Of a stretch of 64,000 nucleotides of DNA, positions 3,125 to 58,577 are shown piece after piece. The translations under genes were made by a program, and so were the position numbers. Below the pieces are notes generated by a model. It was given only the letters and a program-made list of their open reading frames with translations. It was not told the DNA's origin and made no database searches. The stretch is taken from the NCBI RefSeq assembly GCF_003290025.1, contig NZ_QNHG01000002.1, positions 570,941 to 634,940 on the forward strand, given 5' to 3'. Numbering within the stretch: the stretch's first letter is position 1; each line of letters starts with the position of its first letter. The stretch is from Pseudogemmobacter bohemicus (lineage in GTDB: Bacteria > Pseudomonadota > Alphaproteobacteria > Rhodobacterales > Rhodobacteraceae).

Positions 3125-3209
3125 GTCAGGATGGGACACATAGTCCTTGCATATAACACGAAAGAGCCAGGCCCCGATGCCCGGCCCATACCAACAAAGG
3201 GAGCGAACC

Positions 3210-4298: not shown

Positions 4299-4319
4299 CA
4301 CCTCGGTTCCTGAGCCGGT

Positions 4320-4341
4320 GGCAGGCGGTGCGCCGCCTGCC
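4320..4341 (+). other. Intercistronic hairpin after the binding-protein gene
   Basis: GGCAGGCGG and CCGCCTGCC form a perfect 9-bp stem with a TGCG loop, followed by a pyrimidine-rich stretch. It lies between binding-protein and ATPase genes of one operon. It probably protects the upstream message or partly terminates, giving more binding protein than membrane parts. Confidence 0.6.
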
Positions 4342-4372
4342 TTCGCGTTTTCCCCTCTTTCATGGGCGCCAA

Positions 4373-5449: not shown

Positions 5450-5453
5450 GGCG

Positions 5454-6323: not shown

Positions 6324-6327
6324 GCAG

Positions 6328-7194
6328 ATGAACGTCGCCGCCCCCCGCTCCGGTCTGATGCGTGGCCTTTATATCGGCTATATGCTGGCCTTTTTCTTCT
6401 ACCTCGCCGCGCCGCTGGCCGCCGCCGCGATCTTTGCCTTCAACGATTCCCAGTTCCCGGCGCTGCCCTGGAAAGGGTTCACCCTGAACTGGTTTTTCGG
6501 CAGTACCGAGCCTCAGATCGGCCTGTTCAACGACCGCCGCCTGATGGCGGGGCTGATCAATTCGCTCTGGATCGGGGTGATCGTCTCGGCACTTTCGGTG
6601 GTGATCGGCACCTGCAACGCGTTTTTGTTCGAGCGGAAGAGCTTCCCCTTCAAAAGCGCGCTTTATGTGCTGATGATCGTGCCGCTGGTGATCCCGGGTG
6701 TGATCCTCGGCATCTCGATCCTGGTGTTTTCCAGCATGATCGCCAATGGCGTCAGCGATGCCTTTTGGTGGGAATGGGATTTCCTGCGCCCGGGCGTGTT
6801 GCTGGTGATCCTGGGGCAGTTGTCATTTCTGGTGACGATCACCACGCTGGTGATCTCGGCCCGGCTGCGGAAATTCGACATCGCGCTGGAAGAGGCGGCG
6901 CTGAACCTTGGCGCGTCCAGGGTCAGGGTGCTGGCAACAGTGACGCTGCCTTACCTCGCGCCGGCGCTGTTTTCCGGCTTTGTGGTGGCGTTTCTGGTGT
7001 CGTTCGAGAATTTCAACACGACGCTGATGCTGGTCGGCTCGGATGCTCCGCTGACGATCACCATGTATGACCGCATGGTCAAGGTCGGCTCGACGCCGGT
7101 TCTGAATGCGGTTTCGGTGTTCCTGATGATCGGCTCGGGGCTGCTGGCGCTGGCCAGCGTCTTCGCACAGCGCCCGCGTCGCGGCGAGGGCTGA
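6328..7194 (+). CDS. ABC transporter permease, PotC-like
   Basis: This is the second permease of the polyamine-type importer, 288 residues with six predicted membrane spans. The EAA motif (LEEAALNLGASRVRVLATVTLPYLAPAL) lies at about 188-215, which should contact the ATPase. It is the last gene of the operon and follows the PotB-like gene by four bases (TGAGCAGATG). It converges on the fused aldolase/dehydrogenase gene, with a GC-rich hairpin in between. Confidence 0.9.
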   Translation: MNVAAPRSGLMRGLYIGYMLAFFFYLAAPLAAAAIFAFNDSQFPALPWKGFTLNWFFGSTEPQIGLFNDRRLMAGLINSLWIGVIVSALSVVIGTCNAFLFERKSFPFKSALYVLMIVPLVIPGVILGISILVFSSMIANGVSDAFWWEWDFLRPGVLLVILGQLSFLVTITTLVISARLRKFDIALEEAALNLGASRVRVLATVTLPYLAPALFSGFVVAFLVSFENFNTTLMLVGSDAPLTITMYDRMVKVGSTPVLNAVSVFLMIGSGLLALASVFAQRPRRGEG

Positions 7195-7204
7195 GCCCCG
7201 CCGC

Positions 7205-7222
7205 GCGCTGATGTGTCAGCGC
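7205..7222. terminator. Hairpin between convergent genes
   Basis: GCGCTGA-TGTG-TCAGCGC is a perfect 7-bp stem in the 21-base gap between the PotC-like gene and the convergent aldolase/dehydrogenase gene, overlapping the latter's stop codon. There is no U-tract, so termination is plausible but not certain. Confidence 0.4.
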
Positions 7223-9285
7223 AGGGCCGCTTCGATATTGCCGCCATCCACGGTCATCACATGGGCGGTGGTGCGGGCCGCGCTTGCCAGCGCAGTGAAA
7301 CCCTGCGCGACATGGCTCGCCTCGACCTCGCGGCCGAGAAGATTTCCCCCCATATAGCTGGCCTCATCAAGGCCGCGCGCGGCGGACCGCGCCGCGATCA
7401 TCTCGCCGGTCAGGAGGCCCGAGCGGATACGGTCCGCATTGATCCCGTTCACGCGGATCCCCTCGGATCCCAGTTCCAGCGCCAGCTGGCGCAACAGGAA
7501 GAAGGTTGTCGCTTTGGGCAAGCCATAGGCGCCGAAATTCCTGCCCGGGTTCACCGCCTGTTTCGAGACATTGATCAGGATCTGCCCGGCATCGCCCGCG
7601 CCGCGGGTGCCGCGTGCCGCGGTCTGGGCGCGGAACACCGCGACAGCCGCGCGGGCAAAGGCCTGATGGGCAAAGAAATTCAGCTCGAAACTCTGCCGCA
7701 GGATGTCATCCGGCAGGGTTGCGATCTCGCCATTGATCGCCGCGCCGGCATTGGAGACGAGGATATCAAGCCCGCCGAACCGCGCCACACAGGCCTGCAC
7801 CGCAACCTCTGCCGCGCCTTTCAGCGTGATGTCGCAGGCAATCCCGCCATGGTCGCGGCCAAGGGTCTTCAGCGCGGTATCAAGCAGCGCCTCGTCCCGG
7901 TCGACAAGGAACAAAGCCGCCCCTTCCGCTGCAAAGGCCCGAGCCGTGGCGAGGCCAATCGCGCCTGCGCCGCCGGTGACCAGCACCACCTTGCCCTGAA
8001 AGCGCGGCGGCTTGCCTTTGCCAAGCTTGGCCTGTTCCAGCGACCAGTACTCCATCTCGAACAGGTCGCGCTCGCCAATCGGATAAAACCCGCCAAGCCG
8101 CTCGCCATCCGCCATCACGCGGGTGGTCTGGCTGCCGATATCGCCCGCAATCCGCGCCGCCGCCGCATTGGCGCCGATACCGACCACGCCCTCACCCTCG
8201 ATCCAGGCGAGGCCGGGCATCGGCGAGAGCATGGTCTTCGGCGTTGCGGCCTGGGGCGCCTGGCGGTCAAAATAGGCGCCATATCCGGCGGCGAAATCGC
8301 TTACCGCCTTGCGCAGCGCATCGGGGCCACCGGCCAGGGTCTCGCGGGTGATCACCAACGGGTTGCCCTTGGTGCGGATCACATGATCCGGGGTTGCCAC
8401 GCCGCGTTTCGCCAGCGACGCGAGATCGCCCCGCAAGGTAAAGGCGCGGATCGCATCATCGGCGCGCAGATCGAGGACCGGCATTCCCGCAGTCTCGGGC
8501 AGACAGGATGCCAGCGCGCCGCGCAAGCCCGCCAGCACTTCGGCCAGCCGGGGCGGCGGCAAAGCCGCGCCGGGCCAGACCGGGCCGGGGCGGCGTTGGG
8601 CCAGCCAGGCCTCGACCTCATTGGTGTGGGAAATCAGCCGGTCGTAAGAGGCCTTCGCCCCGGGTCCCCAGGTGAAATGGCCGTGATTGACCAGCAAAAG
8701 GCCCTCGGCTTCGGGATTCGTGTCATAGGCATCCGCCGCCGCCTTGGCCAAAGCAAAGCCCGGCATGATATAGGGAAGCAGCGTCAGCCGGTCGCCGAAA
8801 ATCTCACGCGTGGCCGCCGCGACCTCGGGCAGGTTCGCGAGTGTCAGAAAGGCCGTCGCATGGGTGTGATCGACATATTTATGCGGGATCCAGGCATGCA
8901 GCAGCGTCTCGACCGAGGGGTTGGGGCCTGAACTGTCCATCAGATTGGCGCGCTGCACGTCGACCATCGCCTCGTCGGACAGCGCGGCCAGCCCGCGCAG
9001 CCGCGAAAGCGGCGCCATGCGCACGGCGGGCAAACCGGCGGCGGCAATCGTCTCGAGATCCCAGCCCGAGCCCTTTACATGCAGCACATCGACGGTGTCG
9101 CCGTAAACGTCGACGGCCTGCGCCTTCATCGAGGTATTGCCGCCCCCATGCATGACCATATCGGGGTCGCGCCCGATGATACGCGAGGAATAGACCCTGA
9201 GCGCCAGTTCCCGCGCCGCCGGATCGGACCCCGCCGCATCCTGCAAAGCCCGCGCCTCGGCCTCATCCCAGAGATTCACCCTCAT
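7216..9285 (-). CDS. Fused class II aldolase / short-chain dehydrogenase (RhaD-like bifunctional protein)
   Basis: This 689-residue two-domain enzyme has a class II sugar-phosphate aldolase domain at about 1-400: GGGNTSMK phosphate loop at 47-54, candidate catalytic E126, zinc ligands DHTH at 139-142 and H201 in NHGHFTWG. An SDR domain follows at about 431-689: TGGAGAIG at 437-444, SNAG at 511, S574, Y587 and K591 (YGLPK). Family members split rhamnulose 1-phosphate to DHAP and lactaldehyde and then oxidise the aldehyde. No other rhamnose gene is present, whereas MtnA and MtnK lie next door and a shared TGTCAA element lies in its promoter. Cleavage of methylthioribulose or deoxyribulose 1-phosphate, followed by reduction or oxidation of the aldehyde, is therefore a reasonable alternative. 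ATG 9285 is preferred to GTG 9291 because GGGGAGG is six bases upstream. Confidence 0.88.
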   Translation of the reverse strand: MRVNLWDEAEARALQDAAGSDPAARELALRVYSSRIIGRDPDMVMHGGGNTSMKAQAVDVYGDTVDVLHVKGSGWDLETIAAAGLPAVRMAPLSRLRGLAALSDEAMVDVQRANLMDSSGPNPSVETLLHAWIPHKYVDHTHATAFLTLANLPEVAAATREIFGDRLTLLPYIMPGFALAKAAADAYDTNPEAEGLLLVNHGHFTWGPGAKASYDRLISHTNEVEAWLAQRRPGPVWPGAALPPPRLAEVLAGLRGALASCLPETAGMPVLDLRADDAIRAFTLRGDLASLAKRGVATPDHVIRTKGNPLVITRETLAGGPDALRKAVSDFAAGYGAYFDRQAPQAATPKTMLSPMPGLAWIEGEGVVGIGANAAAARIAGDIGSQTTRVMADGERLGGFYPIGERDLFEMEYWSLEQAKLGKGKPPRFQGKVVLVTGGAGAIGLATARAFAAEGAALFLVDRDEALLDTALKTLGRDHGGIACDITLKGAAEVAVQACVARFGGLDILVSNAGAAINGEIATLPDDILRQSFELNFFAHQAFARAAVAVFRAQTAARGTRGAGDAGQILINVSKQAVNPGRNFGAYGLPKATTFFLLRQLALELGSEGIRVNGINADRIRSGLLTGEMIAARSAARGLDEASYMGGNLLGREVEASHVAQGFTALASAARTTAHVMTVDGGNIEAALR

Positions 9286-9360
9286 TTGCACCCTCCCCGG
9301 TGGATGATTAAGACTGCCTGCTCACAGGCGATTGCAGGACTGTCCGGCATTGTCTACAAA

Positions 9361-9383
9361 TGTCAATTATACCTGTCAAACGT
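9361..9383. promoter_or_regulatory. Candidate operator: tandem TGTCAA boxes
   Basis: TGTCAA at 9361-9366 is repeated 13 bases later as TGTCAAACGT at 9374-9383. The second copy matches 10 of 10 bases at 12895-12904, in front of mtnK and the importer. On the minus strand each TGTCAA reads TTGACA, a perfect -35 box; TTGACA at 9374-9379 is followed 17 bases on by TAGACA, a possible promoter for the aldolase/dehydrogenase gene. A repressor bound here would block that promoter. Confidence 0.5.
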
Positions 9384-9398
9384 AGAATGGAGTCAGCG

Positions 9399-10373
9399 GT
9401 GACCCCCACCTCCCGGCGGCGCACAATCGGCCAGGTCAGCGGCGAGAATGCCGTGATCGAGGTGGCCTGGCTTTATTACCACGAGGGGCTGAACCAGAAG
9501 GACATTGCCGAAACGCTGAGCATCTCGCGCGCGACGGTGGTGAATTATCTGCAGGAGGCGCGCGAGCGCGAGCTGATCCGGATCACCCTGGCGGCGCCGG
9601 CCTTTACCACGCATCGGCTGGCTTCGGATCTCTGCTGCCGCTTTGGTCTGAAAGCGGCCTATGTGGTCCCCGATGAGGGCGCCGGGGTCGAGGATGCCTT
9701 TCGCCGGGTGGTGAAAGGTGCTGCGCTCTGGCTGCCGGATCTGCTGGCGGCGGGCGACAATCTGGGCGTGGCCTGGGGGCGCACCGTATATGACCTCGCC
9801 GAGGCGCTGGAGATCACCCGCACCGAAGAGATGACCGTGTTGCAGCTGGTTGGCTCGATGGCGACGCCTTATGGCTTTACCGCCGAGGCCTGTTCGACCC
9901 GGCTGGCGCAGCGTCTCGGGGCGCGCTGTCTGAACCTCCACGCCCCGGCGATCCTGTCCAGCGCCGAGCTGGCCGGCGCGCTGAGGGCCGAGCCGATCAT
10001 CCGGGTGCAGCTTGATGAGATCGAAAAGCTGAACAAGCTTTTGTTCTCGGTCGGCACTGCGGCAGAGGACAGCCATATCGTGTCCAGCGGTCTCGCGACC
10101 ATGGAGGATCTGGCGCATTACAGGGCGCATGGCGCGGTGGGGGTGATCTGCGGCCGGTTCGTCGATGCCAAAGGCCGCCCGATCCCCGGCCCGATGGAGG
10201 ATCGCATGATCGGCATCCCGCTGGAGCGGTTGACGGGCCTTGATATGGGCATTCTGGTGACCCCCGGCCATGACAAGGTTCAGGCCACGATGGCGGCGAT
10301 AAGGGGCGGTTATGCCACGCATCTGGTCACCGGGTTGACCGTGGCCGAGGCGCTGCTGGCGCAGGATCTGTAA
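9399..10373 (+). CDS. SorC/DeoR-type sugar-binding transcriptional regulator
   Basis: This is a regulator of about 324 residues with an N-terminal helix-turn-helix (about 31-52: LNQKDIAETLSISRATVVNY) and a C-terminal sugar-phosphate-binding domain of the SorC/CggR type, which shares a fold with sugar isomerases (ISOCOT). Such proteins respond to a phosphorylated sugar. It lies between the aldolase/dehydrogenase gene and mtnA-mtnK, so methylthioribose phosphate, deoxyribose phosphate or a related compound is the likely signal. The start is uncertain: GTG 9399 has GGAG six bases upstream, while ATG 9387 and ATG 9360 are in frame but lack a ribosome site, and 9360 lies immediately before the operator-like repeats. 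It converges with mtnA. Confidence 0.85.
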   Translation: MTPTSRRRTIGQVSGENAVIEVAWLYYHEGLNQKDIAETLSISRATVVNYLQEARERELIRITLAAPAFTTHRLASDLCCRFGLKAAYVVPDEGAGVEDAFRRVVKGAALWLPDLLAAGDNLGVAWGRTVYDLAEALEITRTEEMTVLQLVGSMATPYGFTAEACSTRLAQRLGARCLNLHAPAILSSAELAGALRAEPIIRVQLDEIEKLNKLLFSVGTAAEDSHIVSSGLATMEDLAHYRAHGAVGVICGRFVDAKGRPIPGPMEDRMIGIPLERLTGLDMGILVTPGHDKVQATMAAIRGGYATHLVTGLTVAEALLAQDL

Positions 10374-10399
10374 CCCCGCGCCAGCCCATTCCTGTGCCA

Positions 10400-11506
10400 T
10401 CATCGTTTCAGCGCGGCGGCCTTCAGATCGCCGAACATCGCCTCCATCGCGTCCGCATCTGCGGCCACAACACCGCGCTCGGTGATCAGGCCGGTGACCA
10501 GCGCCGCCGGTGTCACGTCAAAGGCCGGGTTGCGGCCGCCTGTGCCGTCGGGGCTGATCTGCACCTGGATGATTTTCCCCGAGGCGTCTTTGCCCTGGAC
10601 ATGGGTGACCTCGGTGTCCGAGCGCTCTTCGATGGGGATTTCCTTCACCCCGTCCACCACCGTCCAGTCGATGGTGGGCGAGGGCAGCGCGACATAGAAA
10701 GGCACGCCATTGGCCTTTGCCGCCAACGCCTTCAGGTATGTCCCGATCTTGTTGCAGACATCGCCCTGGGCGGTGGTGCGGTCGGTGCCGACGATCACCA
10801 GATCGACCTCGCCATGCTGCATCAGATGGCCGCCTGCATTGTCGACGATCAGATCATGGCTGACGCCCGCCGAGTTCAGCTCCCAGGCGGTCAGCTGGGC
10901 GCCCTGGTTGCGGGGCCGCGTCTCATCGACAAAGACATGCACCGGAATGCCGGCGAGGGCGGCGTGATAGATCGGCGAGGTCGCGGTGCCCCAGTCGACC
11001 GTCGCGGGCCAGCCCGCATTGCAATGGGTCAGGATATTGACCCGTTGCCCCGGCTTTCTGGCCGCAATCTCGCGGATCAGCGCGAGGCCATGTTCCCCGA
11101 TCCGCCGGTTGATCTCGACATCTTCATCCGCGATCTCGTCGGCGCGTTTCGCCGCCGCAGCCGCGCGGGCCCCGGGCGCCAGCGGGCGCAGCAGCCGGTC
11201 CATCTCATCCAGCGCCCAGCGGAGGTTGATCGCGGTGGGGCGGGTTTCGTGCAGCACCTCCCAGGTCTCAGTGAGGGAGGCATCCGAGGGGTCGCGCGCC
11301 ATCTGATCCGCCACGCCGTAAGCCGCCGTCGCCCCGATCAGCGGCGCACCACGCACCCACATATCGCGGATCGCGACCGCATAATCGTCGCGCGTGGTCA
11401 AAGGTACGATGCGCAGCTCATGCGGCAGCCAGCGCTGGTCGATGATCATCACCTGGCCCGTCGCCTCGCGCCAGATCGAGCGGTAGGGTTTGCCATTGAT
11501 CTTCAC
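10400..11506 (-). CDS. mtnA: S-methyl-5-thioribose-1-phosphate isomerase
   Basis: This enzyme converts methylthioribose 1-phosphate to methylthioribulose 1-phosphate in methionine salvage, and in many bacteria also 5-deoxyribose 1-phosphate to 5-deoxyribulose 1-phosphate. It is 368 residues, normal for the family. Visible signatures are [13 protein letters not shown] at about 52-64, ILTHCNAG with the catalytic Cys at about 162, DNAGGHLM, and [11 protein letters not shown] with the catalytic Asp at about 242. These separate it from eIF2B subunits, which lack the Cys/Asp pair. It overlaps mtnK by four bases (ATGA), so the two are co-translated. There is no mtnB, mtnC or mtnD in the window, so the product must go elsewhere. 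Confidence 0.95.
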
Positions 11507-12768
11507 AGGTGGTTCTCCTGGGCAATGCGCCGCGCAAGGTCGAGCACGGCAGGGGTTCCGGTCAGGCCATTGCGGCCATGGATCAGCGCAGTGCCAAGCG
11601 CCAGCGCGCGTGTCTCGCAGGCGGCGCGGGTGGGCTCGTCGCTGATCCGTTCGAAATCGGCATTATGGGCGAGGCCAAGGACGCGGCGATGGATCTCGAC
11701 CCCGCAGAACCCAAGCGCATCGCGCCAGATCGCGCCGAGGCGTTCGGTGCGGGCGATCTCGCTGGCGAGGCTGTGGCCCTGATCCTCGTAAAGTGTCGCC
11801 TGGTAGAGGATGCCACTCCGCTCTTCGCGCCAGAGGCGGGTGAATTCGGCCTCGAACATGGTCCAGATGGTCTCGGTGACGGCAAGCAGCCAGTCCTGAT
11901 AGACGGCCCTTGCGCCGGGTGTCGTCTCATGCCCGGGCTGCGCCATAAAGGCCATCAGGAAGTTGGAAATCAGCATGCCCACGTCAAAGCCAATCGGGCC
12001 GTAAGTGGCGAATTCCGGGTCGATCACGCGGATATCGTCGTCTGAGACCATGATCGAGCCGGTATGGAGATCCCCGTGCAGCATCGTCTCGGCCTGCGAG
12101 GTGAAGGCCATTTTCAGATGCTGCGCCGCGACTTTCAGCGTCATATCGCCCTGGATCCGGGCGATGGCACCCTCAAGCCCCGGCGTGTGCCGGTTCAGAC
12201 TGGCATTGAAGTACGGGTCAGAAAAGACAAGGTTTTCTGTGATATCGCACAGCTCGACATTGCCCGCAAACAGCGCCAGATCGGCCTTTTTGTCGGCGGT
12301 TTTCATCGAGAGATCCGAGCCCCGGAACAGCGTCCGCGCGCAGAATTCCCCCAGTCTTTCGCCGAGGTTTTCGTAGCGTTTTCCCTGGATCAGCCCATGG
12401 CGCAGGATGATATGGGGCGTCAGGAATTCCATCACGACAATGGCCTGCGTCTCGTCGAAATACCAGATCTCGGGCACCGAGCCAGGGTCGCGCGCCTCCT
12501 GCCGGATCAGCGCGTTATACTCAAAGAAGCTGCGTTTCAGCGGCAGCGGCCAGGATTCCCCCACCAGCCGCACATAGGGAAGCGCCTGTTTCACAATCGC
12601 CGCGCCCAGCCTGCCGCGCAGGATGAAAACAAGGTTCAGGTTGCCATCGCCAACCTCCTCGACCTGCCAGCTGTCAGCCGGGCCAACACGGTCCAGCAAC
12701 ACATCCAGCCCGCCCAGACGGGTTGGCAGCGTCTCGGGCGTCAGCGCCCGGTAATCAGACGGAATCAC
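11503..12768 (-). CDS. mtnK: S-methyl-5-thioribose kinase
   Basis: This kinase phosphorylates free methylthioribose at C1; several MtnK enzymes also take 5-deoxyribose. The 421-residue protein has the protein-kinase-like fold with the family motif [10 protein letters not shown] at about 231-240 (catalytic Asp at 233) and the metal site DPEFA at about 250, plus a Gly-rich start at about 40. GTG 12768 is chosen because GGAGGAGAGACC directly precedes it; an ATG at 12900 would add 44 residues of unlike composition. It is the first gene of mtnK-mtnA and is divergent from the ribose-type importer, sharing a short promoter region with a perfect TGTCAA box. Having a kinase rather than a phosphorylase implies that free methylthioribose, perhaps imported, is the substrate. 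Confidence 0.94.
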
Positions 12769-12894
12769 GGTCTCTCCTCCCGGAATCGGGGCCTTGCGCG
12801 GAAGGTGCAGGGCCCTTGTCCTGTTCGGCCAATGGGCGGATTCCTCCTGCCGCCCACTGGCTTCGCAGCTCAGAATTTCCATTCTTCCGGCATT

Positions 12895-12912
12895 TGTCAA
12901 ACGTTATTGACT
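12895..12912. promoter_or_regulatory. Inverted-repeat operator overlapping divergent -35 boxes
   Basis: TGTCAA-ACGTTA-TTGACT is a near-perfect inverted repeat. The minus strand reads TTGACA as a -35 box facing mtnK, with a weak AATTCT -10 box 17 bases on. The plus strand reads TTGACT as a -35 box facing the importer. One bound regulator would cover both. The left ten bases repeat exactly at 9374-9383 beside the SorC-type regulator. Confidence 0.55.
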
Positions 12913-12958
12913 TTTGAATAATCACAGCGATAGCCTGGGGATGGGAGAGGAGACCACC

Positions 12959-14467
12959 GTGCCGCAGGATGCCATCGTTATTACGGGGCTGACCCGATCT
13001 TTTGCGCGCAACCATGTGCTTCGCGGGGTGAATCTGACCCTGCCGGCGGGCAAGGTCACCGTGTTGATGGGCGCGAACGGCGCGGGGAAATCCACGCTGG
13101 TCAAGATTCTTTGCGGCGTGCAGCGGCGGGATGCGGGTCAGATCACACTGGACGGTATGCCCTTTGATCCGCCAGACCCGGCCGCTGCGCTGCGGGCCGG
13201 GGTGGTGACGGTGCATCAGAATATCAATGACGGTGTGGCACCCGATCTCGACGTGGCCTCGAACCTCTTGCTGGATGAACTGGCTGCGGGCTCGTCCTTC
13301 TTTCTGAATACCCGCCGGATGCGTGAAGAGGCGCGGCGGATTGCCGGTGCCGTGGGGCTGGAGGTCGATGTTTCGCGCCCGGTGCGCGAGCTGGTGCTGG
13401 CTGACCGCCAGCTGGTTTCCATCGCGCGGGCCATGTCGCATCACCCGCGGCTGTTGATCCTGGACGAGCCGACCTCGTCGCTTTCGGCGGCAGAAACGGA
13501 ACGCCTGTTCACATTGATCGACCGGCTCAGGGCCGAGGGGGTGGCGATCCTTTATATTTCCCACCGCATGTCGGATATCCGCCGCCTTGCCGACCGGATC
13601 GTGTCGATGCGGGACGGTCAGATTTCCGGCCAGTTCGAGGGGGATACCCTTGATTACGCTGGCGCGGTGCGCGCCATGCTGGGCCATGAGATCACCGAGG
13701 TCGATATCGCCATTCCGCCCCAGGGTCGCGCCGTGATCGAGGCGCGCGCGCTGCGTCTGCGGCCCGATTCGGTGCCGTTTGACCTCAGCCTGCATGAGAA
13801 TGAGGTGGTTGCGATCACCGGCCTCGTTGGTTCGGGGAAGTCGGCCTTCGCCGAGGTGCTTTACGGCGTCTCCCGCGCGGTCGGGGGGCAGATCACCCTG
13901 GACGGAAGCGCCTATACGCCGCAGAATCCCGGCGTGGCGGTCAAAGCGGGGGTGTTCCTTTCGGCCAAGGACCGGCTTTTGAATGCGGTGATCCCGGAAT
14001 TCGACATCACCCGCAATATGACGCTGCCCTTCCTGTCGCGCCATGCCGGGCTGTTGGCGCTGCTCCGCCCCGGCTCCGAGCGCGGCACCGCGACAAGGAT
14101 GATCGGTGAGATGGGGGTCGTCTGCCAGAGCCCGAAGGACAGCATCCTGACGCTTTCCGGCGGCAATCAGCAAAAGGTCGTGGTCGCGCGCTGGCTGGCC
14201 GAAGCCTCGCGCCTTCTGATCCTCGATGAACCCTTCCAGGGCGTCGACATCCAGGCCCGCCGCGATATCGGTCGCCATATCCGCGCCAGTGCCTCGGGGC
14301 GTGCCACGCTCGTCCTTTGCGCCGAGATCGACGAGGCGCTGGAGGTCGCGGACCGCATCCTTGTGATGAGCGAGCACTCGATCATCGGCGCCCATCGCAA
14401 CCAGAATATCGACCTTGGCCTTGTCATGGCGCAGGTCACCGAATCCGCCGCAGGACATGTCGCATGA
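12959..14467 (+). CDS. Ribose-type sugar ABC transporter ATP-binding protein (RbsA-like)
   Basis: This is a duplicated ATPase of about 502 residues with two nucleotide-binding domains. The first has GANGAGKST (Walker A) and LLILDEPTSSLS (Walker B). The second has GLVGSGKSA, the canonical signature LSGGNQQKVVVARWL and LLILDEPFQGVD. This tandem form is specific to the CUT2 class, which carries pentoses and small sugars. GTG 12959 is chosen because AGAGGAG lies six bases upstream; ATG 12941 is in frame and possible. It begins a probable six-gene operon (ATPase, permease, binding protein, two transketolase subunits, RuBisCO-like protein) divergent from mtnK, so methylthioribose or another unusual pentose is the likely cargo. 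Confidence 0.9.
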   Translation: MPQDAIVITGLTRSFARNHVLRGVNLTLPAGKVTVLMGANGAGKSTLVKILCGVQRRDAGQITLDGMPFDPPDPAAALRAGVVTVHQNINDGVAPDLDVASNLLLDELAAGSSFFLNTRRMREEARRIAGAVGLEVDVSRPVRELVLADRQLVSIARAMSHHPRLLILDEPTSSLSAAETERLFTLIDRLRAEGVAILYISHRMSDIRRLADRIVSMRDGQISGQFEGDTLDYAGAVRAMLGHEITEVDIAIPPQGRAVIEARALRLRPDSVPFDLSLHENEVVAITGLVGSGKSAFAEVLYGVSRAVGGQITLDGSAYTPQNPGVAVKAGVFLSAKDRLLNAVIPEFDITRNMTLPFLSRHAGLLALLRPGSERGTATRMIGEMGVVCQSPKDSILTLSGGNQQKVVVARWLAEASRLLILDEPFQGVDIQARRDIGRHIRASASGRATLVLCAEIDEALEVADRILVMSEHSIIGAHRNQNIDLGLVMAQVTESAAGHVA

Positions 14468-15480
14468 AAAGAGACTTCAATTTTACCGATTTCGCGATCC
14501 GCTACGGGTTTCTGATCCTGATGGCAGGGCTGGTGATCGGGTTTTCCATCGCGCAGCCGGCCTTCCTGACCGCGCGGAGCGGCGTGTTCATCCTGCAATC
14601 GGTTGCGATCACCGGCATTCTGGCGCTTGGGGTGACGGCGACGCTGGTGGTCGGCGGGTTTGATCTGTCCATCGGGGCGGTGGCGACTTCGGCCCTGATG
14701 CTTTCGGCCTATACGATGGTGATCTGGGATCTGGGCGCGGTCGAGGCGGTGGTGTTCTGCCTGGCGATGGGGGCCTTTGTCGGGTTGGTGAACGGGCTGC
14801 TGATCGTCAAGATGCGGGTGCCGGATCTGCTGGCGACGCTAGGAATGATGTTCCTGCTGATGGGGCTGCAGCGCATCCCGACGGAAGGAAATTCCATCTC
14901 GACCGGTATGTCGCTGCCTGATGGCAGCACCGCGAGCGGGGTCTTCTCGCCCGGCTTCCTGATGCTGGGGCGGCATCGGCTGGATTTCATCCTGGATGAT
15001 CTGGTGCCGCTGTCGGTGGTGTTCCTGATCGTGATCGCGCTGCTGGTCTGGGGGTTTCTTGAACTGACCCGCCATGGCCGCGTGATGTATGCGATCGGGT
15101 CGAACGCCAAAGCCGCGAGCCTCGCGGGGATCAACGTGAATTTCTATCGCGTGCTGGCCTATGTGATTTCGGGCACACTGGCCTCTTTCGGCGGCATCCT
15201 CTTGTCGGCGCGGCTGGGGCGCGGCGATGTGGCCTCGGGGAACAACCTGCTGCTGGATGCGGTCGCTGCCGCGCTGATCGGCTTTGCCGTGCTGGGCGCC
15301 GCGAAACCGAACGCCTTTGGCACCGCCATCGGTGCGCTGTTTGTCGGCATCCTCTTGCAGGGTCTGACGATGCTGAACGCGCCCTATTACACCCAGGATT
15401 TCATCAAGGGCGCCGTTCTCGTCGTCGCCCTCGTTTTTACCTTCGCGCTTTCCGGTCGGGGAGGCCGGGCGCGCGGCTAG
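14464..15480 (+). CDS. Ribose-type sugar ABC transporter permease (RbsC-like)
   Basis: This is an inner-membrane permease of 338 residues with eight to ten hydrophobic segments and the CUT2 permease signature region (ATLVVGGFDLSIGAVATSAL and later GRVMYAIGSNAKAASLAGINV). It overlaps the ATPase gene by four bases (ATGA), so the two are translated together. It forms a homodimer in characterised CUT2 systems, which explains the single permease gene. The substrate is inferred from the divergent mtnK and the downstream enzymes. Confidence 0.92.
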   Translation: MKRDFNFTDFAIRYGFLILMAGLVIGFSIAQPAFLTARSGVFILQSVAITGILALGVTATLVVGGFDLSIGAVATSALMLSAYTMVIWDLGAVEAVVFCLAMGAFVGLVNGLLIVKMRVPDLLATLGMMFLLMGLQRIPTEGNSISTGMSLPDGSTASGVFSPGFLMLGRHRLDFILDDLVPLSVVFLIVIALLVWGFLELTRHGRVMYAIGSNAKAASLAGINVNFYRVLAYVISGTLASFGGILLSARLGRGDVASGNNLLLDAVAAALIGFAVLGAAKPNAFGTAIGALFVGILLQGLTMLNAPYYTQDFIKGAVLVVALVFTFALSGRGGRARG

Positions 15481-15513
15481 TCACGCCGAATAATGGAGAA
15501 GAGGGAGGAAACC

Positions 15514-16551
15514 ATGATCTCCAGACGGATGTTTGCAGGGCTTTTGGCCGGGGTCGCGCTGATCCCGGGGCTGGCGGTGGCGCAGGATGCGCCGGCGCCG
15601 TTCGACAAGCCGGGCGAGGTGAAGATCGCGCTGGTGCGCTATCTTTCCACCGGTGATTTCTTCCAGGCCTATCTTTCGGGTGTGGAAAAGCAGTCAGAGG
15701 CCCTGGGCGTCAGCCTCCAGGTGTTTGACTCGCGCCAGGATGCGGCTTTGCAGGCCGATATGGTCGATCAGGCCATCGCGCTTGGGGTTGATGGCATCAT
15801 CATCCAGCACGGTCTGACCGAATCGATGAAAGAGGCCGCGCAGCGCGCCGTCGATGCCGGAATCAAGGTCGTCGCTTTCGACGTGAATGTCGAAAACGCC
15901 GCCATCCCGCAGGTCGAACAGTCTGACCGCGACCTGGCACGTCTGGCGCTGGAACAGGCGATCAAGGATCAGGGTGAGACCTGGACCGCCGGTTACGTCT
16001 ATGTCCCCGGCATTGCGCCGCTTGACCGCCGCGACGAGACCTGGAAAGAGTTCAAGGCGAAATATCCGGGCATCACCGAGAAAGCGATGTTCGGCACCAT
16101 GGACAACCCGATCGCGAATTCGGTCGCGAACCAGGCGCGCTCGGTGCTGTCTGCCAACCCCGACATCCAGGTCGTCTTTGCCCCCTATGACGAATTCGCC
16201 AAGGGCGTGAAGATCGCCGTCGACGAGGCCGGCATGGGTCAGGATGTGGCGATCTATTCGGCGGACGTGTCGACCGCCGATATCGCGCTGATGCGCGAGG
16301 AAGGCTCCAGCTGGAAAGCCACCGCCGCGACCAACCCCGCCGTGGTGGGTGAGGTCTCGGTGCGCACGCTCGCGCAGCTGCTGGCGGGCGAAGAGGTCGG
16401 CGCACAGGTCATCGTTCCGCCGACGCTGATCACCCAGGCCGAACTGAATGAGCTGAACATCTCGAATATGGAAGAGCTGGGCGCGAAGATGCCGGCCTTT
16501 GTCCATGCCGAGGTCTCGGTCAGCCCCTGGATGAAGCTGCCCGCACGTTGA
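15514..16551 (+). CDS. Sugar-binding protein of a ribose-type ABC transporter (RbsB-like)
   Basis: This is a periplasmic binding protein of 345 residues, type I fold, with the family sequence QADMVDQAIALGVDGIIIQ and later ANPDIQVVFAPYDEFAKGV. The N-terminus is MISRRMFAGLLAGVALIPG, followed by a VAQ cleavage site. The SRRMF pair fits a Tat signal as well as a Sec signal. ATG 15514 is chosen because GGGAGGAAACC precedes it; ATG 15493 is in frame but would add residues before the signal. It ends just before a strong hairpin. As part of the operon with RuBisCO-like protein and transketolase genes, and divergent from mtnK, it probably binds a pentose or a 5-thio/5-deoxypentose. Confidence 0.9.
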   Translation: MISRRMFAGLLAGVALIPGLAVAQDAPAPFDKPGEVKIALVRYLSTGDFFQAYLSGVEKQSEALGVSLQVFDSRQDAALQADMVDQAIALGVDGIIIQHGLTESMKEAAQRAVDAGIKVVAFDVNVENAAIPQVEQSDRDLARLALEQAIKDQGETWTAGYVYVPGIAPLDRRDETWKEFKAKYPGITEKAMFGTMDNPIANSVANQARSVLSANPDIQVVFAPYDEFAKGVKIAVDEAGMGQDVAIYSADVSTADIALMREEGSSWKATAATNPAVVGEVSVRTLAQLLAGEEVGAQVIVPPTLITQAELNELNISNMEELGAKMPAFVHAEVSVSPWMKLPAR

Positions 16552-16560
16552 ACACTGACC

Positions 16561-16581
16561 GGGGCCGGCCTGTCCGGCCCC
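16561..16581 (+). other. Intercistronic hairpin after the binding-protein gene
   Basis: GGGGCCGG-CCTGT-CCGGCCCC is a perfect 8-bp stem ten bases after the binding-protein stop, followed by GCCTTTCC. It probably stabilises the upstream transporter message and lowers read-through into the transketolase genes. The spacing to the next start (16605) still allows one operon. Confidence 0.6.
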
Positions 16582-16604
16582 GCCTTTCCGCGATGAGGCC
16601 ACAG

Positions 16605-17534
16605 ATGCAAAATTCCCGAACCACCGAAGATGTGGCCCATGGCATCCGCTGCCGCGTTTTTGAGCACACGATGCGCAACAATGGCGGCTATCTGAGCCAG
16701 GCCTGTTCCGCTGCCGAACAGCTGGCGTTTCTTTACAACGAGGCGCTCAATCTCGGCCCCTCGACCATGCCGCTGGTGCCGCCGCCTTTTGGTGGCGTGC
16801 CCTCTGCCGGTAACCATGATTACCGCACCGGCGCCGGTTATAACGGGCCCTTTGACATGGTGCATGACCGGCTGTTCATCGCGCCTGCCCATTACGCGCT
16901 GGTGGCTTATGCCTGCCTGATCGAGGTGGGTCGCATGGCCCCCGAAGGGCTGGAAATGTTTAACCAGGACGGATCTTCGGTCGAGATGATCGGCGCCGAA
17001 CATTCCCCGGGGATGGAGGTGCATAACGGCACGCTCGGCATCGGGCTCTCCACCGGCGCCGGCCTCGCCTGGGGCCGCAAACGCAAAGGCGAGACCGGCG
17101 AGGTTTGCGTCTATATGTCGGATGGTGAGGTCCAGGAGGGCCAGACATGGGAGGCGGTTCAGGCCGCCGCCCATCACGGTATAGACAATCTCTGGGCGCT
17201 GATGGACGTCAACCGTCAGCAATGCGACGGCGCAATGGATTCTGTTATGACCGTCGGCGACATCGCCACCAAATTCCGCAATTTCGGCGCTGTGGTCGCC
17301 GAGGTCGATGCCCATGACCTGACCGCTCTGCGCGAGGCCAAAGCCACGCCCCATGCGGGCCAGCCGCTGATCATCCTCGCCCATTCCAGCCCCACGAAAG
17401 GCATGGACTTCCTCATGCGTCGCTTTCCGCGTCTGCATTACGTCCGGTTCAAATCCGATGAGGAACGCTGTGAGATGAACATCGCCATCGCCGCCGGGCT
17501 TGGCATCGAGCCTGTCGATCTGGGGGAGCACTGA
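16605..17534 (+). CDS. Transketolase-type subunit A (N-terminal, ThDP pyrophosphate-binding half)
   Basis: This 309-residue protein matches the N-terminal third of transketolase. The ThDP/magnesium site is visible as SDGEVQEG at about 172-179 (Ser in place of the usual first Gly of GDGE) with the paired N203 in DVNRQQ, and HSPGMEVHNGTLG is the substrate-side loop. Residues 58-83, rich in Pro, Gly and Asn, look like an insertion relative to common transketolases. Its partner is the next gene. Split transketolases are known for special sugars, for example apulose 4-phosphate. The context (mtnK, mtnA, RuBisCO-like protein) suggests a ketose phosphate from methylthio-, deoxy- or branched-sugar catabolism. 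ATG 16605 follows GAGGCCACAG; 16593 is an in-frame alternative. Confidence 0.88.
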   Translation: MQNSRTTEDVAHGIRCRVFEHTMRNNGGYLSQACSAAEQLAFLYNEALNLGPSTMPLVPPPFGGVPSAGNHDYRTGAGYNGPFDMVHDRLFIAPAHYALVAYACLIEVGRMAPEGLEMFNQDGSSVEMIGAEHSPGMEVHNGTLGIGLSTGAGLAWGRKRKGETGEVCVYMSDGEVQEGQTWEAVQAAAHHGIDNLWALMDVNRQQCDGAMDSVMTVGDIATKFRNFGAVVAEVDAHDLTALREAKATPHAGQPLIILAHSSPTKGMDFLMRRFPRLHYVRFKSDEERCEMNIAIAAGLGIEPVDLGEH

Positions 17535-17535
17535 G

Positions 17536-18537
17536 ATGGAAATGGTAAACCGCCCCTATGCCAAAGCCTTCGAGGATTACGCGGTGCAGCACCCCGAGGT
17601 GCTTTGCCTCTCTGCCGATCTGACCTCCAGCTGCGAGATCGACGGCTTTCGCGACCGGCACCCGGGCCAGTTCCTCTCGCTCGGCATGGCCGAGCAGAAC
17701 ATGCTGTCTTTCGCGGGCGGGCTGGGGCTGGCGGGCTTCCGGCCCTTCCTGCATTCGTTTGGCGTCTTCCTCTACCGTCGCCCCTATGACCAGCTGATGG
17801 CCTCCATCGCCTATCCGCGCCGCCAGGTGCGGCTGATGGGCTTCCTGCCCGGCATCACCACGCCGGGCGGCATGACGCATCAGGCGATCGAGGATATCTC
17901 GGTCATGCGCACGATCCCGAATATGACCGTGCTGGAAGCGGGCGACGCCACCGAGGTCGAGAGCATCGTTGCCGCCGCTGACAGCGTTGATGGTCCGGTC
18001 TATTGCCGCATCCTGCGCGGCGCGGTGCCGCGCCTGTTCGATACCCCGCTGGAGATCGGCAGGATCCGGGTGCTGGCCGAAGGCACGGATGTGCTGATCA
18101 TCACCGCCGGCATCACCACCGAAGAGGCGATCCGGGCGCGGGCTGCGCTGAATCGGGCGGGGGTCTCGGTTCGGCACCTGCATCTCAACACGCTGAAACC
18201 CTTCGACGCCGCGACGATCCTCGGCCATGCGGAGGCGGTGAAACACGGCGTCATCACGCTGGAAAACCACCTGGTGACCGGCGGCATCGGCTCGATGGTG
18301 GGTGAGGCGCTGGCCGAGGCGGGGCTGCCGCGCCGGTTGATCCGGCTGGGCTTGCAGGACACCTATGCGCATGGCGGTTCGCGCCATTATCTCATGCGCT
18401 ATTACGGTATGGATGCGCTGAGCCTTGTTCGCGCGGCAGAGCGTCTGACCGGTCAACAGACCGGCATTGATGAGGAGGCACTTGGTGCGGTCCGGGTCGA
18501 GGCGGTGCATTCGGTGGTCAAGGCCGAGGCGCTTTGA
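17536..18537 (+). CDS. Transketolase-type subunit B (pyrimidine-binding and C-terminal domains)
   Basis: This 333-residue partner of subunit A carries the pyrimidine-binding domain with the catalytic glutamate in SLGMAEQNMLSFAGGLG (about 51-67), which activates ThDP, then the C-terminal transketolase domain (about 200-325, ITAGITTEEAIRARAAL and TLENHLVTGGIGSMV). Together A and B make a complete transketolase or 1-deoxyxylulose-synthase-like enzyme that cleaves a ketose between C2 and C3. It starts one base after the stop of subunit A and its own stop overlaps the start of the RuBisCO-like gene (TGATG), which argues for tightly linked production of all three proteins. Confidence 0.9.
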   Translation: MEMVNRPYAKAFEDYAVQHPEVLCLSADLTSSCEIDGFRDRHPGQFLSLGMAEQNMLSFAGGLGLAGFRPFLHSFGVFLYRRPYDQLMASIAYPRRQVRLMGFLPGITTPGGMTHQAIEDISVMRTIPNMTVLEAGDATEVESIVAAADSVDGPVYCRILRGAVPRLFDTPLEIGRIRVLAEGTDVLIITAGITTEEAIRARAALNRAGVSVRHLHLNTLKPFDAATILGHAEAVKHGVITLENHLVTGGIGSMVGEALAEAGLPRRLIRLGLQDTYAHGGSRHYLMRYYGMDALSLVRAAERLTGQQTGIDEEALGAVRVEAVHSVVKAEAL

Positions 18538-19658
18538 TGCGTTTCACCGTCACCTACCGTATCCGCGCCGCAGACCTGGCCGATGCCCGCGCCCGCGCGG
18601 AGGCCGTCGCGCTGGAGCAGACGGTCGAGATCCCGCGGGCGGTGGTGCCCAAAGGCTATGTCAAGGATGAAATCCTTGGTCGGGTCGAGGAGGTCGGCAC
18701 CCTGACCGAGGGGGTCTTTCAGGCAAAAATCTCTTACTCGCCCGACAGTGCCGGGGATGAATTCAGCCAGTTCCTGAATGTGGTTTTCGGCAACAGCTCG
18801 ATCCAGCAGGGGATCCGTGTCACCGGGGTCGAGCCGGGCGAGACCATGCTGAAGCGCTTTCCGGGGCCGCGTTTCGGGATCAGAGGCATCCGCGCGCGGG
18901 TGGGTCGTGCAAAGGGCGGCATGATCGCGCCGGTGCTGAAACCGATGGGCCAGCCGCCCGGGGCTTTCGCGGCGCTGGCGGCGGGTTGTGTGCGGGGTGG
19001 TGCCGATATCATCAAGGAAGATCATGGGCTTGCTGGCCAGGCCACAGCGCCGTTCGAGGCGCGGGTCGAGGCGGTGGCGAAAGCCGTGGCCCGCGCCAAT
19101 CGTGACCATGGCCGCAGCGCGATCTATATCCCGAACCTCTCAGGCCCCGCCGATCAGATCGAGGCGCGGCTCAGGTTCGCGCGGGATGCCGGGGCGGGGG
19201 GTGCCATCGTTATGCCGGGGCTTCTTGGCTTTGGCATGGTGCATAGGATCGCGCGGGATGCGGGGCTTGACCTGCCGGTGATGACGCATCCGTCCTTCCT
19301 TGGCCCCTGGGTGCTGTCGCCCGATACCGGCATGGATCACGGGGTGATTTTCGGCACGCTTCCGAGGCTGGCAGGGGCGGATATTTCGGTTTTCCCGAAT
19401 GTGGGGGGACGTTTCGGCTTTTCAGCCGCAGAGTGTAGCCAGATTGCCGATGCCTGCCGTGATCCGGCCGGGCCGGGGGCTTTGACGCTCCCCAGCCCGG
19501 GCGGCGGCATGAGCGTTGGGCGCGCCGGCGATATGGTGCGGATGTATGGCCAGGATGTGGTCTATCTGCTGGGCGGCAGCCTGCTGGCCGATCCGCCCAA
19601 TATCCACCTGGCCGTTGCCGCGATGCGTGAGGCAGTCGACCGGGCCGAAGAGAGCTGA
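18537..19658 (+). CDS. RuBisCO-like protein (form IV)
   Basis: This 373-residue protein has the RuBisCO large-subunit fold: an N-terminal alpha/beta domain (about 1-125) and a TIM barrel. VLKPMG holds the first active-site lysine (about K135), and GGADIIKEDHG holds the carbamate-type lysine (about K160) and metal Asp (D162), but the following Glu is His (H163). The strand-6 loop reads NVGGRFGFS and lacks the catalytic lysine needed for CO2 fixation. It is therefore not a carboxylase. Known relatives enolise or isomerise methylthioribulose 1-phosphate or act on apionate-derived sugars. With mtnK and mtnA divergent and a transketolase fused by overlap upstream, isomerisation of methylthioribulose 1-phosphate is the leading idea. 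ATG 18537 is used; TTG 18534 is a weaker alternative. Confidence 0.93.
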   Translation: MRFTVTYRIRAADLADARARAEAVALEQTVEIPRAVVPKGYVKDEILGRVEEVGTLTEGVFQAKISYSPDSAGDEFSQFLNVVFGNSSIQQGIRVTGVEPGETMLKRFPGPRFGIRGIRARVGRAKGGMIAPVLKPMGQPPGAFAALAAGCVRGGADIIKEDHGLAGQATAPFEARVEAVAKAVARANRDHGRSAIYIPNLSGPADQIEARLRFARDAGAGGAIVMPGLLGFGMVHRIARDAGLDLPVMTHPSFLGPWVLSPDTGMDHGVIFGTLPRLAGADISVFPNVGGRFGFSAAECSQIADACRDPAGPGALTLPSPGGGMSVGRAGDMVRMYGQDVVYLLGGSLLADPPNIHLAVAAMREAVDRAEES

Positions 19659-52492: not shown

Positions 52493-52568
52493 GATGGCCT
52501 CCATGAGGGTACAAGAGCCTGCATCGCGCCGCAGCAAGCGGGCGAAGGGCTTCGGGGACAAGGGGGAA

Positions 52569-52590
52569 CCCGGCCCTTTCAGGGGCCGGG
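52569..52590 (-). other. Hairpin after binding-protein gene
   Basis: CCCGGCCC-TTTCAG-GGGCCGGG is a perfect 8-bp stem seven bases after the stop of the gene at 52598, followed by TTCCCCC on the coding strand. It repeats the pattern of a hairpin behind every binding-protein gene in the window except the iron one and that at 58578. Confidence 0.55.
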
Positions 52591-52597
52591 AAAAGGG

Positions 52598-53938: not shown

Positions 53939-53967
53939 AGTGTAGTGCCTTGGTTTCTTGTGTTGGT

Positions 53968-58437: not shown

Positions 58438-58577
58438 AGCGGTATATTCAGAAAAATTCGTCTGCAACCTTGCGTTGAATGAAAGAGATCCGCCTGAGGT
58501 CCCTGTGTCATCTGTTCTGGCATCAGGCCTCGATTCGCAAGAATCAGCTGTGGCCGATCCAGATTCGGAGACATTCC

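What the first reader, a model, noticed from the sequence alone, without database searches (positions are those of the whole stretch)
9399..19658. A methylthioribose locus with a transketolase and a RuBisCO-like protein instead of known downstream enzymes
Seen: mtnK and mtnA are divergent from a ribose-type importer, a split transketolase and a form IV RuBisCO-like protein. The last three genes overlap or nearly overlap. Known: MtnK and MtnA make methylthioribulose 1-phosphate; in Rhodospirillum a RuBisCO-like protein isomerises it to methylthioxylulose 5-phosphate and a cupin releases methanethiol. Here no cupin and no mtnB, mtnC or mtnD is found. Inference: the transketolase could cleave methylthioxylulose 5-phosphate (or deoxyxylulose 5-phosphate from 5-deoxyribose) between C2 and C3, giving glyceraldehyde 3-phosphate and a two-carbon methylthio or methyl fragment on ThDP. 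That would be a new exit from methionine salvage. The competing idea is a branched-sugar route, since split transketolases and RuBisCO-like proteins are both known from apiose and apionate catabolism.
Basis: partly seen in the sequence, partly recalled or inferred. Interest (0 to 1): 0.88.

Follow-up and report, generated by a model that had tools for sequence, protein, structure and literature searches.

The report
Methylthioribose locus with RuBisCO-like protein, transketolase
A cluster of bacterial genes for taking up and breaking down methylthio- or deoxy-sugars left over from methionine use pairs a RuBisCO-like protein with a remodelled two-part transketolase, which suggests an untested way of ending this recycling route.

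Summary
The genes are real: mtnK and mtnA, a SorC-type regulator, a ribose-type importer, a split transketolase (TKN, TKC) and a form IV RuBisCO-like protein (RLP). The RLP-transketolase link is not an accident: of 47 genomes whose RLP falls in the window's clade, 45 have both transketolase halves beside it and 39 have mtnA in the same stretch (34 with mtnK, 4 with a purine nucleoside phosphorylase instead, none with both). Sister RLPs sit beside a cupin (15 of 16; one at a contig end) and not beside this transketolase. One genome fuses mtnA to TKN. The transketolase has lost several sugar-contact residues. Best reading: the RLP makes methylthioxylulose 5-phosphate and the transketolase, in the cupin's place, cleaves it to glyceraldehyde 3-phosphate plus a two-carbon fragment. 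Whether the sugar is methylthioribose or 5-deoxyribose, and what becomes of the fragment (methanethiol plus acetyl, or an aldehyde), is open. The apiose idea is not supported. No activity is shown; all rests on sequence and context.

The parts
7216..9291 (-). bifunctional class II aldolase / short-chain dehydrogenase (PRK08324 type); candidate aldol exit from ribulose 1-phosphates (DHAP-shunt type)
   Evidence: NF006192 820.6 bits, cut-off 639; PF00596 + PF00106; in the same stretch in 26 of 47 genomes
9360..10373 (+). SorC/DeoR-type sugar-binding regulator
   Evidence: PF04198 190.4 bits; 36% identical to E. coli YjhU = MtnR, repressor of the DHAP shunt, against 27% to the regulator in the apiose cluster of E. 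coli SE15 (PMC12632272 passages)
10400..11506 (-). mtnA, methylthioribose-1-phosphate isomerase (only copy found in the genome)
   Evidence: TIGR00512 417.5 bits, cut-off 279; one match in the own genome
11503..12882 (-). mtnK, methylthioribose kinase (from the ATG; an in-frame TTG lies at 12900)
   Evidence: TIGR01767 466.2 bits, cut-off 275
12941..14467 (+). ribose-type ABC importer, ATPase
   Evidence: PF00005; named sugar ATPase models all below cut-off
14464..15480 (+). ribose-type ABC importer, permease
   Evidence: PF02653
15493..16551 (+). ribose-type ABC importer, substrate-binding protein
   Evidence: PF13407
16593..17534 (+). TKN: N-terminal (ThDP-binding) half of a split transketolase
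   Evidence: PF00456; best solved relative 6yak, N-terminal part of a split transketolase
17536..18537 (+). TKC: C-terminal half (pyrimidine-binding and C-terminal domains) of the split transketolase
   Evidence: PF02779, PF02780; best solved relative 6yaj
18537..19658 (+). form IV RuBisCO-like protein, sister clade of the cupin-linked RLPs
   Evidence: best solved relative 3qfw, 248.2 bits; tree; K-E-D-H motif

Best explanation
A catabolic and salvage locus for 5-modified riboses, most likely 5-methylthioribose, with a new RLP-transketolase branch. (1) The importer brings in the free sugar (inferred). (2) MtnK and MtnA make 5-methylthioribulose 1-phosphate (family membership). (3) The RLP moves the carbonyl to give 1-methylthioxylulose 5-phosphate (inferred from its sister clade). 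(4) The split transketolase, in the place of the cupin of the MTA-isoprenoid shunt, cleaves this between C2 and C3, giving glyceraldehyde 3-phosphate and a ThDP-bound two-carbon fragment (inferred). (5) The fragment most likely loses methanethiol by beta-elimination, as phosphoketolases lose water (recalled chemistry), leaving an acetyl group released as acetate or acetyl phosphate; or it is simply protonated to 2-(methylthio)acetaldehyde (speculation). The aldolase/SDR next door is a parallel DHAP-shunt-type exit. 5-Deoxyribose could run through the same steps. The confidence is for steps 2-4, whichever of the two sugars is the main one, and so overlaps with the first rival.
For: TKN and TKC beside the RLP in 45 of 47 genomes, mtnA in the same stretch in 39 of 47, cupin in 0 of 47; sister RLPs: cupin in 15 of 16 (L054 lies at a contig end), and in those 15 no TKN, TKC, mtnA or mtnK. 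One change between the two states on the larger RLP tree (window side 94/84, 47 rows, two of them without TK). mtnA-TKN fusion of 656 aa followed by TKC and RLP, with a NupC-type transporter and a PNP divergent. A co-directional run mtnK-mtnA-TKN-TKC-RLP (L131). Entry swap: mtnK in 34, PNP in 4, both in 0. bisC-family S/N-oxide reductase in 4 of 47, between mtnA and TKN in L016 and L148, which points to a sulfide substrate. Pocket: H26 to Y and D469 to G, no His at 100 and 461, in 45 of 45; ThDP and catalytic residues kept. RLP has His for E204. Known partner chemistry: R. palustris RLP1 and cupin (PMC5893883 passages).
Against: No activity data. The RLP group differs from the cupin side at 14 well-kept positions, so its reaction may differ. 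The cupin was not compared with the characterised methylsulfurylases, and matches only general cupin models far below cut-off; that it is the same enzyme is inference. D469, which in canonical transketolase contacts a sugar hydroxyl (recalled), is lost although methylthioxylulose 5-phosphate still has that hydroxyl. The register at position 100 is uncertain (M, I) and a His lies a few residues on. In the smaller tree the TK label needed two changes. The PNPs score as purine nucleoside phosphorylase, not as MTA phosphorylase (two of the four scanned). Two of 47 genomes have the RLP without a transketolase beside it (L037, L149). The bisC link rests on 4 genomes, two of one genus (G014, G1087), and one (L027) has no mtnA found at all. 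The aldolase could be the main exit.
Confidence: 0.62

Rival explanations
1. The true substrate is 5-deoxyribose (from 5'-deoxyadenosine), not methylthioribose: the RLP gives 1-deoxyxylulose 5-phosphate and the transketolase cleaves it to glyceraldehyde 3-phosphate and an acetaldehyde-level fragment.
For: Known 5-deoxyribose clusters have kinase, isomerase, aldolase, transporters and in one case a fucose-mutarotase homologue (PMC6079011 passages), much as here (FucU-like gene in 15 of 47 loci). The regulator is 36% identical to MtnR, which represses the DHAP shunt unless 5-deoxyribose is present.
Against: bisC-family S/N-oxide reductase in 4 of 47 loci. 1-Deoxyxylulose 5-phosphate is already useful for isoprenoids, so a dedicated lyase is less expected (inference). 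The own genome has an MTA phosphorylase above cut-off, so MTA does feed MtnA there.
Confidence: 0.3
2. Only the aldolase/SDR is the exit; RLP and transketolase serve another sugar brought in by the same importer and merely share the regulator.
For: The aldolase/SDR is in the same stretch in 26 of 47 genomes; a class II aldolase is known to take methylthioribulose 1-phosphate in R. palustris (PMC5893883 passages).
Against: mtnA-TKN fusion; co-directional run with mtnK-mtnA (L131); RLP-TK with mtnA but no aldolase/SDR in the stretch in the four PNP genomes; the sister RLP clade holds the MTA-shunt type.
Confidence: 0.13
3. A branched-sugar (apiose/apionate) route, with the RLP as OiaX-like decarboxylase and the transketolase as apulose 4-phosphate transketolase.
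For: A split transketolase (AptA/AptB) is known from apiose use (PMC13001218 passages), and RLPs from apionate use (PMC6302742 passage).
Against: RLP scores 79.3 of 700 bits on OiaX and falls outside the OiaX-like group (100/99); OiaK-like kinase in 0 of 53 TK-type stretches against 5 of 6 OiaX-like ones (the query's own among the five), AplK-like one hit at 24%; AptAB is 29% identical and keeps H26 and H100.
Confidence: 0.03
4. Plain ribose/nucleoside use: ribose 1-phosphate to ribulose 1-phosphate (MtnA) to xylulose 5-phosphate (RLP), then ordinary transketolase chemistry.
For: PNP and NupC-type transporter in place of mtnK in L078.
Against: Kinase and isomerase pass the curated methylthioribose cut-offs; loss of the His expected to hold the C1 hydroxyl (role recalled); cells normally do this with phosphopentomutase (general knowledge).
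Confidence: 0.08

Closest known systems
MTA-isoprenoid shunt of Rhodospirillum rubrum / Rhodopseudomonas palustris (RLP1 + cupin)
   Same: MtnA product passed to an RLP; the window RLP is in the sister clade of the cupin-linked RLPs and has the His-for-Glu204 motif
   Different: split transketolase in place of the cupin; mtnA and mtnK linked to the RLP here and in 0 of 15 cupin loci
DHAP shunt / 5-deoxyribose disposal (MtnK, MtnA, class II aldolase, MtnR)
   Same: mtnK, mtnA, class II aldolase domain, YjhU-like regulator, sugar importer
   Different: aldolase is fused to an SDR; additional RLP and transketolase
Sulfo-TK pathway (transketolase SqwGH on sulfoquinovose-derived ketoses)
   Same: a transketolase adapted to a sulfur-bearing ketose (PMC9594981 passages; that it is a split enzyme is recalled)
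   Different: there the sulfur stays on the aldehyde product and the two-carbon unit is an ordinary ketol; here the sulfur group would be on the two-carbon unit
Apulose 4-phosphate transketolase AptAB (E. coli SE15)
   Same: split transketolase in a sugar locus with a ribose-type importer
   Different: 29% identical; keeps H26, H100, H473; other residues changed, R520 is G
MtnW enolase (Bacillus)
   Same: RLP in methionine salvage
   Different: 123.2 of 513.6 bits on TIGR03332; no MtnD in the genome

Membership tests
MTRu-1P 1,3-isomerase RLP (IV-DeepYkr, R. rubrum/R. palustris RLP1 type) | falls in the clade of characterised members | tested here: inconclusive
   sister group of the cupin-linked clade that holds 3qfw (that 3qfw is from R. 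palustris is recalled; no characterised sequence was at hand by name); joint clade 99/97
MTRu-1P 1,3-isomerase RLP (IV-DeepYkr, R. rubrum/R. palustris RLP1 type) | short RLP with His replacing Glu204 in the catalytic motif | tested here: met
   K161-E-D163-H164 (numbered from the TTG at 18534); K, D and H invariant in 29 window-side and 15 cupin-side rows; feature stated for these RLPs in a passage of PMC5468372
MTRu-1P 1,3-isomerase RLP (IV-DeepYkr, R. rubrum/R. palustris RLP1 type) | isomerase activity on 5-methylthioribulose 1-phosphate | not testable with these tools
   needs an assay
MTA-isoprenoid shunt | cupin-type methylsulfurylase with the RLP | tested here: not met
   no match in the window or genome (no positive control in that search); 0 of 47 TK-type loci
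OiaX (3-oxo-isoapionate 4-phosphate decarboxylase) | curated model NF042437 | tested here: not met
   79.3 bits, cut-off 700
MtnW | curated model TIGR03332 | tested here: not met
   123.2 bits, cut-off 513.6
transketolase superfamily (split) | ThDP motif (DG...N) and catalytic Glu411 | tested here: met
   D155, N185, E411 in 45 of 45; G154 is Ser in 45 of 45
canonical transketolase (E. coli TktA type) | sugar-contact residues H26, H100, R358, H461, D469 (roles recalled) | tested here: not met
   Y at 26 and G at 469 in 45 of 45; no His at 100 or 461 in any; R358 not kept
apulose 4-phosphate transketolase AptAB | sequence close to AptA/AptB and apiose genes nearby | tested here: not met
   29.1% identity; no OiaK-like and one weak AplK-like hit in 53 stretches
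DHAP shunt | MtnK (or phosphorylase) and MtnA | tested here: met
   curated cut-offs passed
DHAP shunt | class II aldolase acting on the ribulose 1-phosphate | tested here: inconclusive
   class II aldolase domain present; substrate not testable here; not compared with Ald2
canonical methionine salvage | acireductone dioxygenase MtnD | tested here: not met
   0 matches in the genome; 5 of 14 control genomes rang
canonical methionine salvage | MtnC enolase/phosphatase | not tested
   not searched for

The most novel reading that the evidence does not exclude
The split transketolase is a methanethiol-releasing ketolase: after cleaving 1-methylthioxylulose 5-phosphate it eliminates CH3SH from the ThDP-bound fragment, leaving acetyl-ThDP that ends as acetyl phosphate or acetate. 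It would do the cupin's C-S cleavage by ThDP chemistry and turn methylthioribose into glyceraldehyde 3-phosphate, an acetyl unit and methanethiol for methionine, without oxygen and without isoprenoid precursors.
Probability: 0.28. Interest if true: 0.88.

Novelty: new variant of a known kind. Interest (0 to 1): 0.74.

Why it matters
Methionine salvage has several exits from methylthioribulose 1-phosphate; a RuBisCO-like protein feeding a transketolase would be a further one and a new job for both enzyme families. If methanethiol is released, it adds a bacterial source of a volatile sulfur compound in Rhodobacteraceae and relatives. The claim can be tested at once with purified enzymes and with cultured carriers.

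Tried and rejected
Apiose/apionate reading: rejected. Canonical salvage elsewhere in the genome: no MtnD. A recurrent further enzyme for the two-carbon fragment: an all-against-all comparison of unlabelled open frames in 27 stretches gave ten families present in three or more; by eye they are transporter parts (ABC and TRAP types), an SDR, an enolase-superfamily protein, a GAF-type protein, an aldo-keto-reductase-like frame and missed aldolase or regulator pieces, nothing that would clearly process acetyl or methylthio units. Cupin within TK loci: 0 of 47. Literature: 0 papers with RuBisCO-like protein, methylthioribose and transketolase; one search gave 9 papers, one search gave 43 (20 listed), one search gave 23 (15 listed), one search gave 34 (8 listed), one search gave 169 (25 listed), one search gave 1, one search gave 33 (10 listed); one search listed 5 of 5,787, none holding both methylthioxylulose and transketolase. 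I read passages, not whole papers, of PMC5893883, PMC6302742, PMC6079011, PMC13001218, PMC9594981, PMC12632272, PMC7895386 and PMC5468372. None of these listings or passages describes RLP plus transketolase with mtnA. Subscription papers are not held, so this does not show that it is unpublished. Structure prediction and fold search were not used. MtnC, promoters and regulator sites were not examined. The register of transketolase position 100 differs between two alignments, so I claim only that no His aligns there.
Full report
What is there. The window carries, in order: aldolase/SDR (7216-9291, minus), SorC-type regulator (9360-10373, plus), mtnA (10400-11506, minus), mtnK (11503-12882, minus), then on the plus strand a ribose-type ABC importer (12941-16551), TKN (16593-17534), TKC (17536-18537) and RLP (18537-19658) (family). 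MtnK and MtnA pass curated cut-offs; the RLP passes none of the six NCBIfam models it matches (MtnW 123.2 of 513.6 bits, OiaX 79.3 of 700), and its best solved relative is 3qfw (248.2 bits), then 4nas (139.4 bits). The transketolase halves are closest to the split transketolase 6yak/6yaj.

The rest of the genome (one search places the window in a 5.6-Mb genome). One MtnA, no MtnD, no match to the RLP-linked cupin (no positive control), an MTA phosphorylase above cut-off (L075, 289.2 of 274.85 bits), a purine nucleoside phosphorylase (L074) and an AMP nucleosidase (L076), all scored on the matched stretch, and three class II aldolases. Transketolase-like C halves: eight matches, the window's own, three other split ones (L062-L064), a DXS-like one (L065), a full-length one (L066) and two weak ones (L067, L068) (the names DXS-like and full-length from similarity and frame length). 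The candidate exits from MTRu-1P that I found in this genome are both in this locus; MtnC was not searched.

How common. RLP matches: 9 of 60 relatives at E 1e-20, 26 of 395 genomes of the family at 1e-30, 23 of 387 of the class at 1e-15, 8 of 397 of the phylum at 1e-30, and 21 loci in named genome contigs (a peptide-pattern search that finds close relatives). The four tallies include the window's genome and other kinds of RLP.

Neighbourhood count. I merged stretches of the same genome (by handle or equal contig length) to 47 genomes whose RLP falls on the window's side of the final tree (47 rows, 94/84). Within the fetched stretch: TKN 45, TKC 45, mtnA 39, mtnK 34, PNP-type phosphorylase 4, mtnK and PNP together 0, importer 34, regulator 36, aldolase/SDR 26, FucU/RbsD-like mutarotase 15, bisC-family reductase 4, cupin 0. 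The window's row was filled in by hand and then confirmed by search. Thresholds were mine (identity 30-60% by gene, at least 30% of the query covered; aldolase/SDR 45% identity), and contig ends make absences lower bounds. Without TK beside the RLP: G430 (L037) and G946 (L149). Of the 8 genomes without mtnA in the stretch, 7 have one elsewhere (in G1128 in two open frames) and one, G1129 (L027, 2.3 Mb), has none; the call also held two genomes with mtnA, so 9 of 10 rang. mtnK was sought genome-wide in five: found in G022 and G429, not in G014, G428 and G430. The comparison set, 13 loci and 2, has the cupin in 15 of 15 and every other gene of the list in 0 of 15. That set was chosen by the cupin; a sixteenth sister, L054, ends at a contig edge. 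The independent part is the tree: with 72 rows the two states need one change (cupin rows as one group 73/9; 14 of the 15 with 3qfw and L054 100/100). With 50 rows the TK label needed two changes, because L077 and L078 stood apart. Two weaker RLPs, L134 and L150, have neither cupin nor TK in their stretches and fall with the OiaX-like outgroup.

Rearrangements that keep the link. TKN, TKC and RLP run in one direction in 49 of 49 stretches with all three (stretches, some genomes twice). mtnK, mtnA, TKN, TKC, RLP in one direction in L131; PNP, mtnA, bisC, TKN, TKC, RLP in one direction in L016 and L148; in L025 the PNP leads into TKN and mtnA is divergent. In G211 (L078) mtnA and TKN form one 656-aa frame with no stop and no ATG, GTG or TTG codon in the linker, followed by TKC and RLP; a NupC-type nucleoside transporter (301.1 bits, cut-off 442) and a PNP are divergent. 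It is one fragmented assembly (about 320 contigs; kinship group and quality) and could hold an error, but the fused protein scores as MtnA (425.5 bits, cut-off 279) over 3-333 and as transketolase over 436-629.

Entry swap. 34 genomes have mtnK, 33 of them with the sugar importer; 4 have a PNP in place of mtnK, one with a binding protein that weakly matches a BMP-type model (L016, 59.5 of 400 bits) and one with NupC (L078). Both ways yield a sugar 1-phosphate for MtnA. The four PNP genomes have no aldolase/SDR in the stretch, so the RLP-TK branch occurs without it. The bisC-family S/N-oxide reductase (908.7 bits in L025, 885.8 in a part from L016; family cut-off 1017.55, so below it; L027 and L148 by similarity only) in 4 genomes suggests a sulfoxide of a methylthio compound; two of the four are one genus.

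Transketolase pocket (E. coli TktA numbering; the roles of the residues are recalled). In 45 of 45 members: H26 is Y, G154 is S, D469 is G, no His at 100 (M in 27 and L in 1 of 28; I in 45 of 45, a shift of register) or at 461 (L, F), R358 not kept; H66, D155, N185, S385, E411, H473 and R520 kept. H261 could not be aligned. AptAB of E. coli SE15 keeps H26, H100 and H473 and differs elsewhere (D469 is L, R520 is G). A His lies a few residues after position 100 (GAEH in the rows printed), so a replacement contact cannot be excluded. Loss of the C1-side His fits a substrate without the C1 hydroxyl, such as 1-methylthio- or 1-deoxyxylulose 5-phosphate.

RLP. 40 positions are invariant and equal in 29 window-side rows (L037 among them) and 15 cupin-side rows (13 cupin-linked, L054 and 3qfw), including K161, D163 and H164; 14 positions are kept in each but differ. 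A passage of PMC5468372 states that the R. palustris and R. rubrum form IV proteins are like one about 100 residues shorter than forms I-III with His for Glu204; the window RLP fits. L077 lacks 14 residues that hold a His in the other rows printed.

Known biology (passages only). PMC5893883: R. palustris RLP1 (RPA2169) is an MTRu-1P 1,3-isomerase, the cupin RPA2170 a methylsulfurylase, and Ald2 a parallel branch, so two exits in one cell have a precedent. The cupins of the comparison set were not compared with RPA2170; they match general cupin models weakly, and the same function is inference from the pairing. PMC6079011: 5-deoxyribose clusters with kinase, isomerase, aldolase, transporters and a fucose-mutarotase homologue. 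PMC12632272: MtnR = YjhU represses the DHAP shunt; the window regulator is 36% identical to YjhU. PMC9594981: SqwGH, a transketolase for a sulfur sugar. PMC13001218: AptA/AptB.

Verdict. The link of RLP, split transketolase and MtnA is firm as genomics. That the transketolase acts on the RLP product is the best reading (0.62). Which sugar, and what becomes of the two-carbon fragment, are open.

Noticed in passing
window 3177-7194 (+): Polyamine-type ABC importer (binding protein near PotD/PotF, below cut-off; ATPase and permeases by eye) directly upstream; its last gene or genes also lie next to the cluster in three same-genus relatives. Polyamine synthesis is a source of MTA.
   Followed up: partly
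window 51149-53971 (-) and 58479-59918 (+): Three binding-protein-like proteins with a shared (M)ERLDTSGVSRRDFLS-like twin-arginine start (two of them scanned) around an RbsA/RbsC-type transporter and an NtaA/DmoA-family monooxygenase (455.9 bits, cut-off 279.7).
   Followed up: partly
L078 7149-9119 (-): mtnA-transketolase N-half gene fusion in one alphaproteobacterial genome.
   Followed up: yes
L037 9971-12539: Window-clade RLP between a different ribose-type importer and an enolase-superfamily gene (by eye), with no transketolase near and no mtnK found in the genome; a possible change of function.
   Followed up: partly
L077 RLP: RLP lacking 14 residues that hold a His in other rows, next to a full-length transketolase pair.
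   Followed up: no
own genome C4:646297 (L092): Another split transketolase (34% identical over both halves) that also has Y for H26 but lies outside this cluster; its pathway is unknown.
   Followed up: no
window 28378-29898 and 27263-28381 (-): MlrC-like metallopeptidase and BhcC-like aldolase, both well below cut-offs, beside what look like amino-sugar genes (last label by eye).
   Followed up: no
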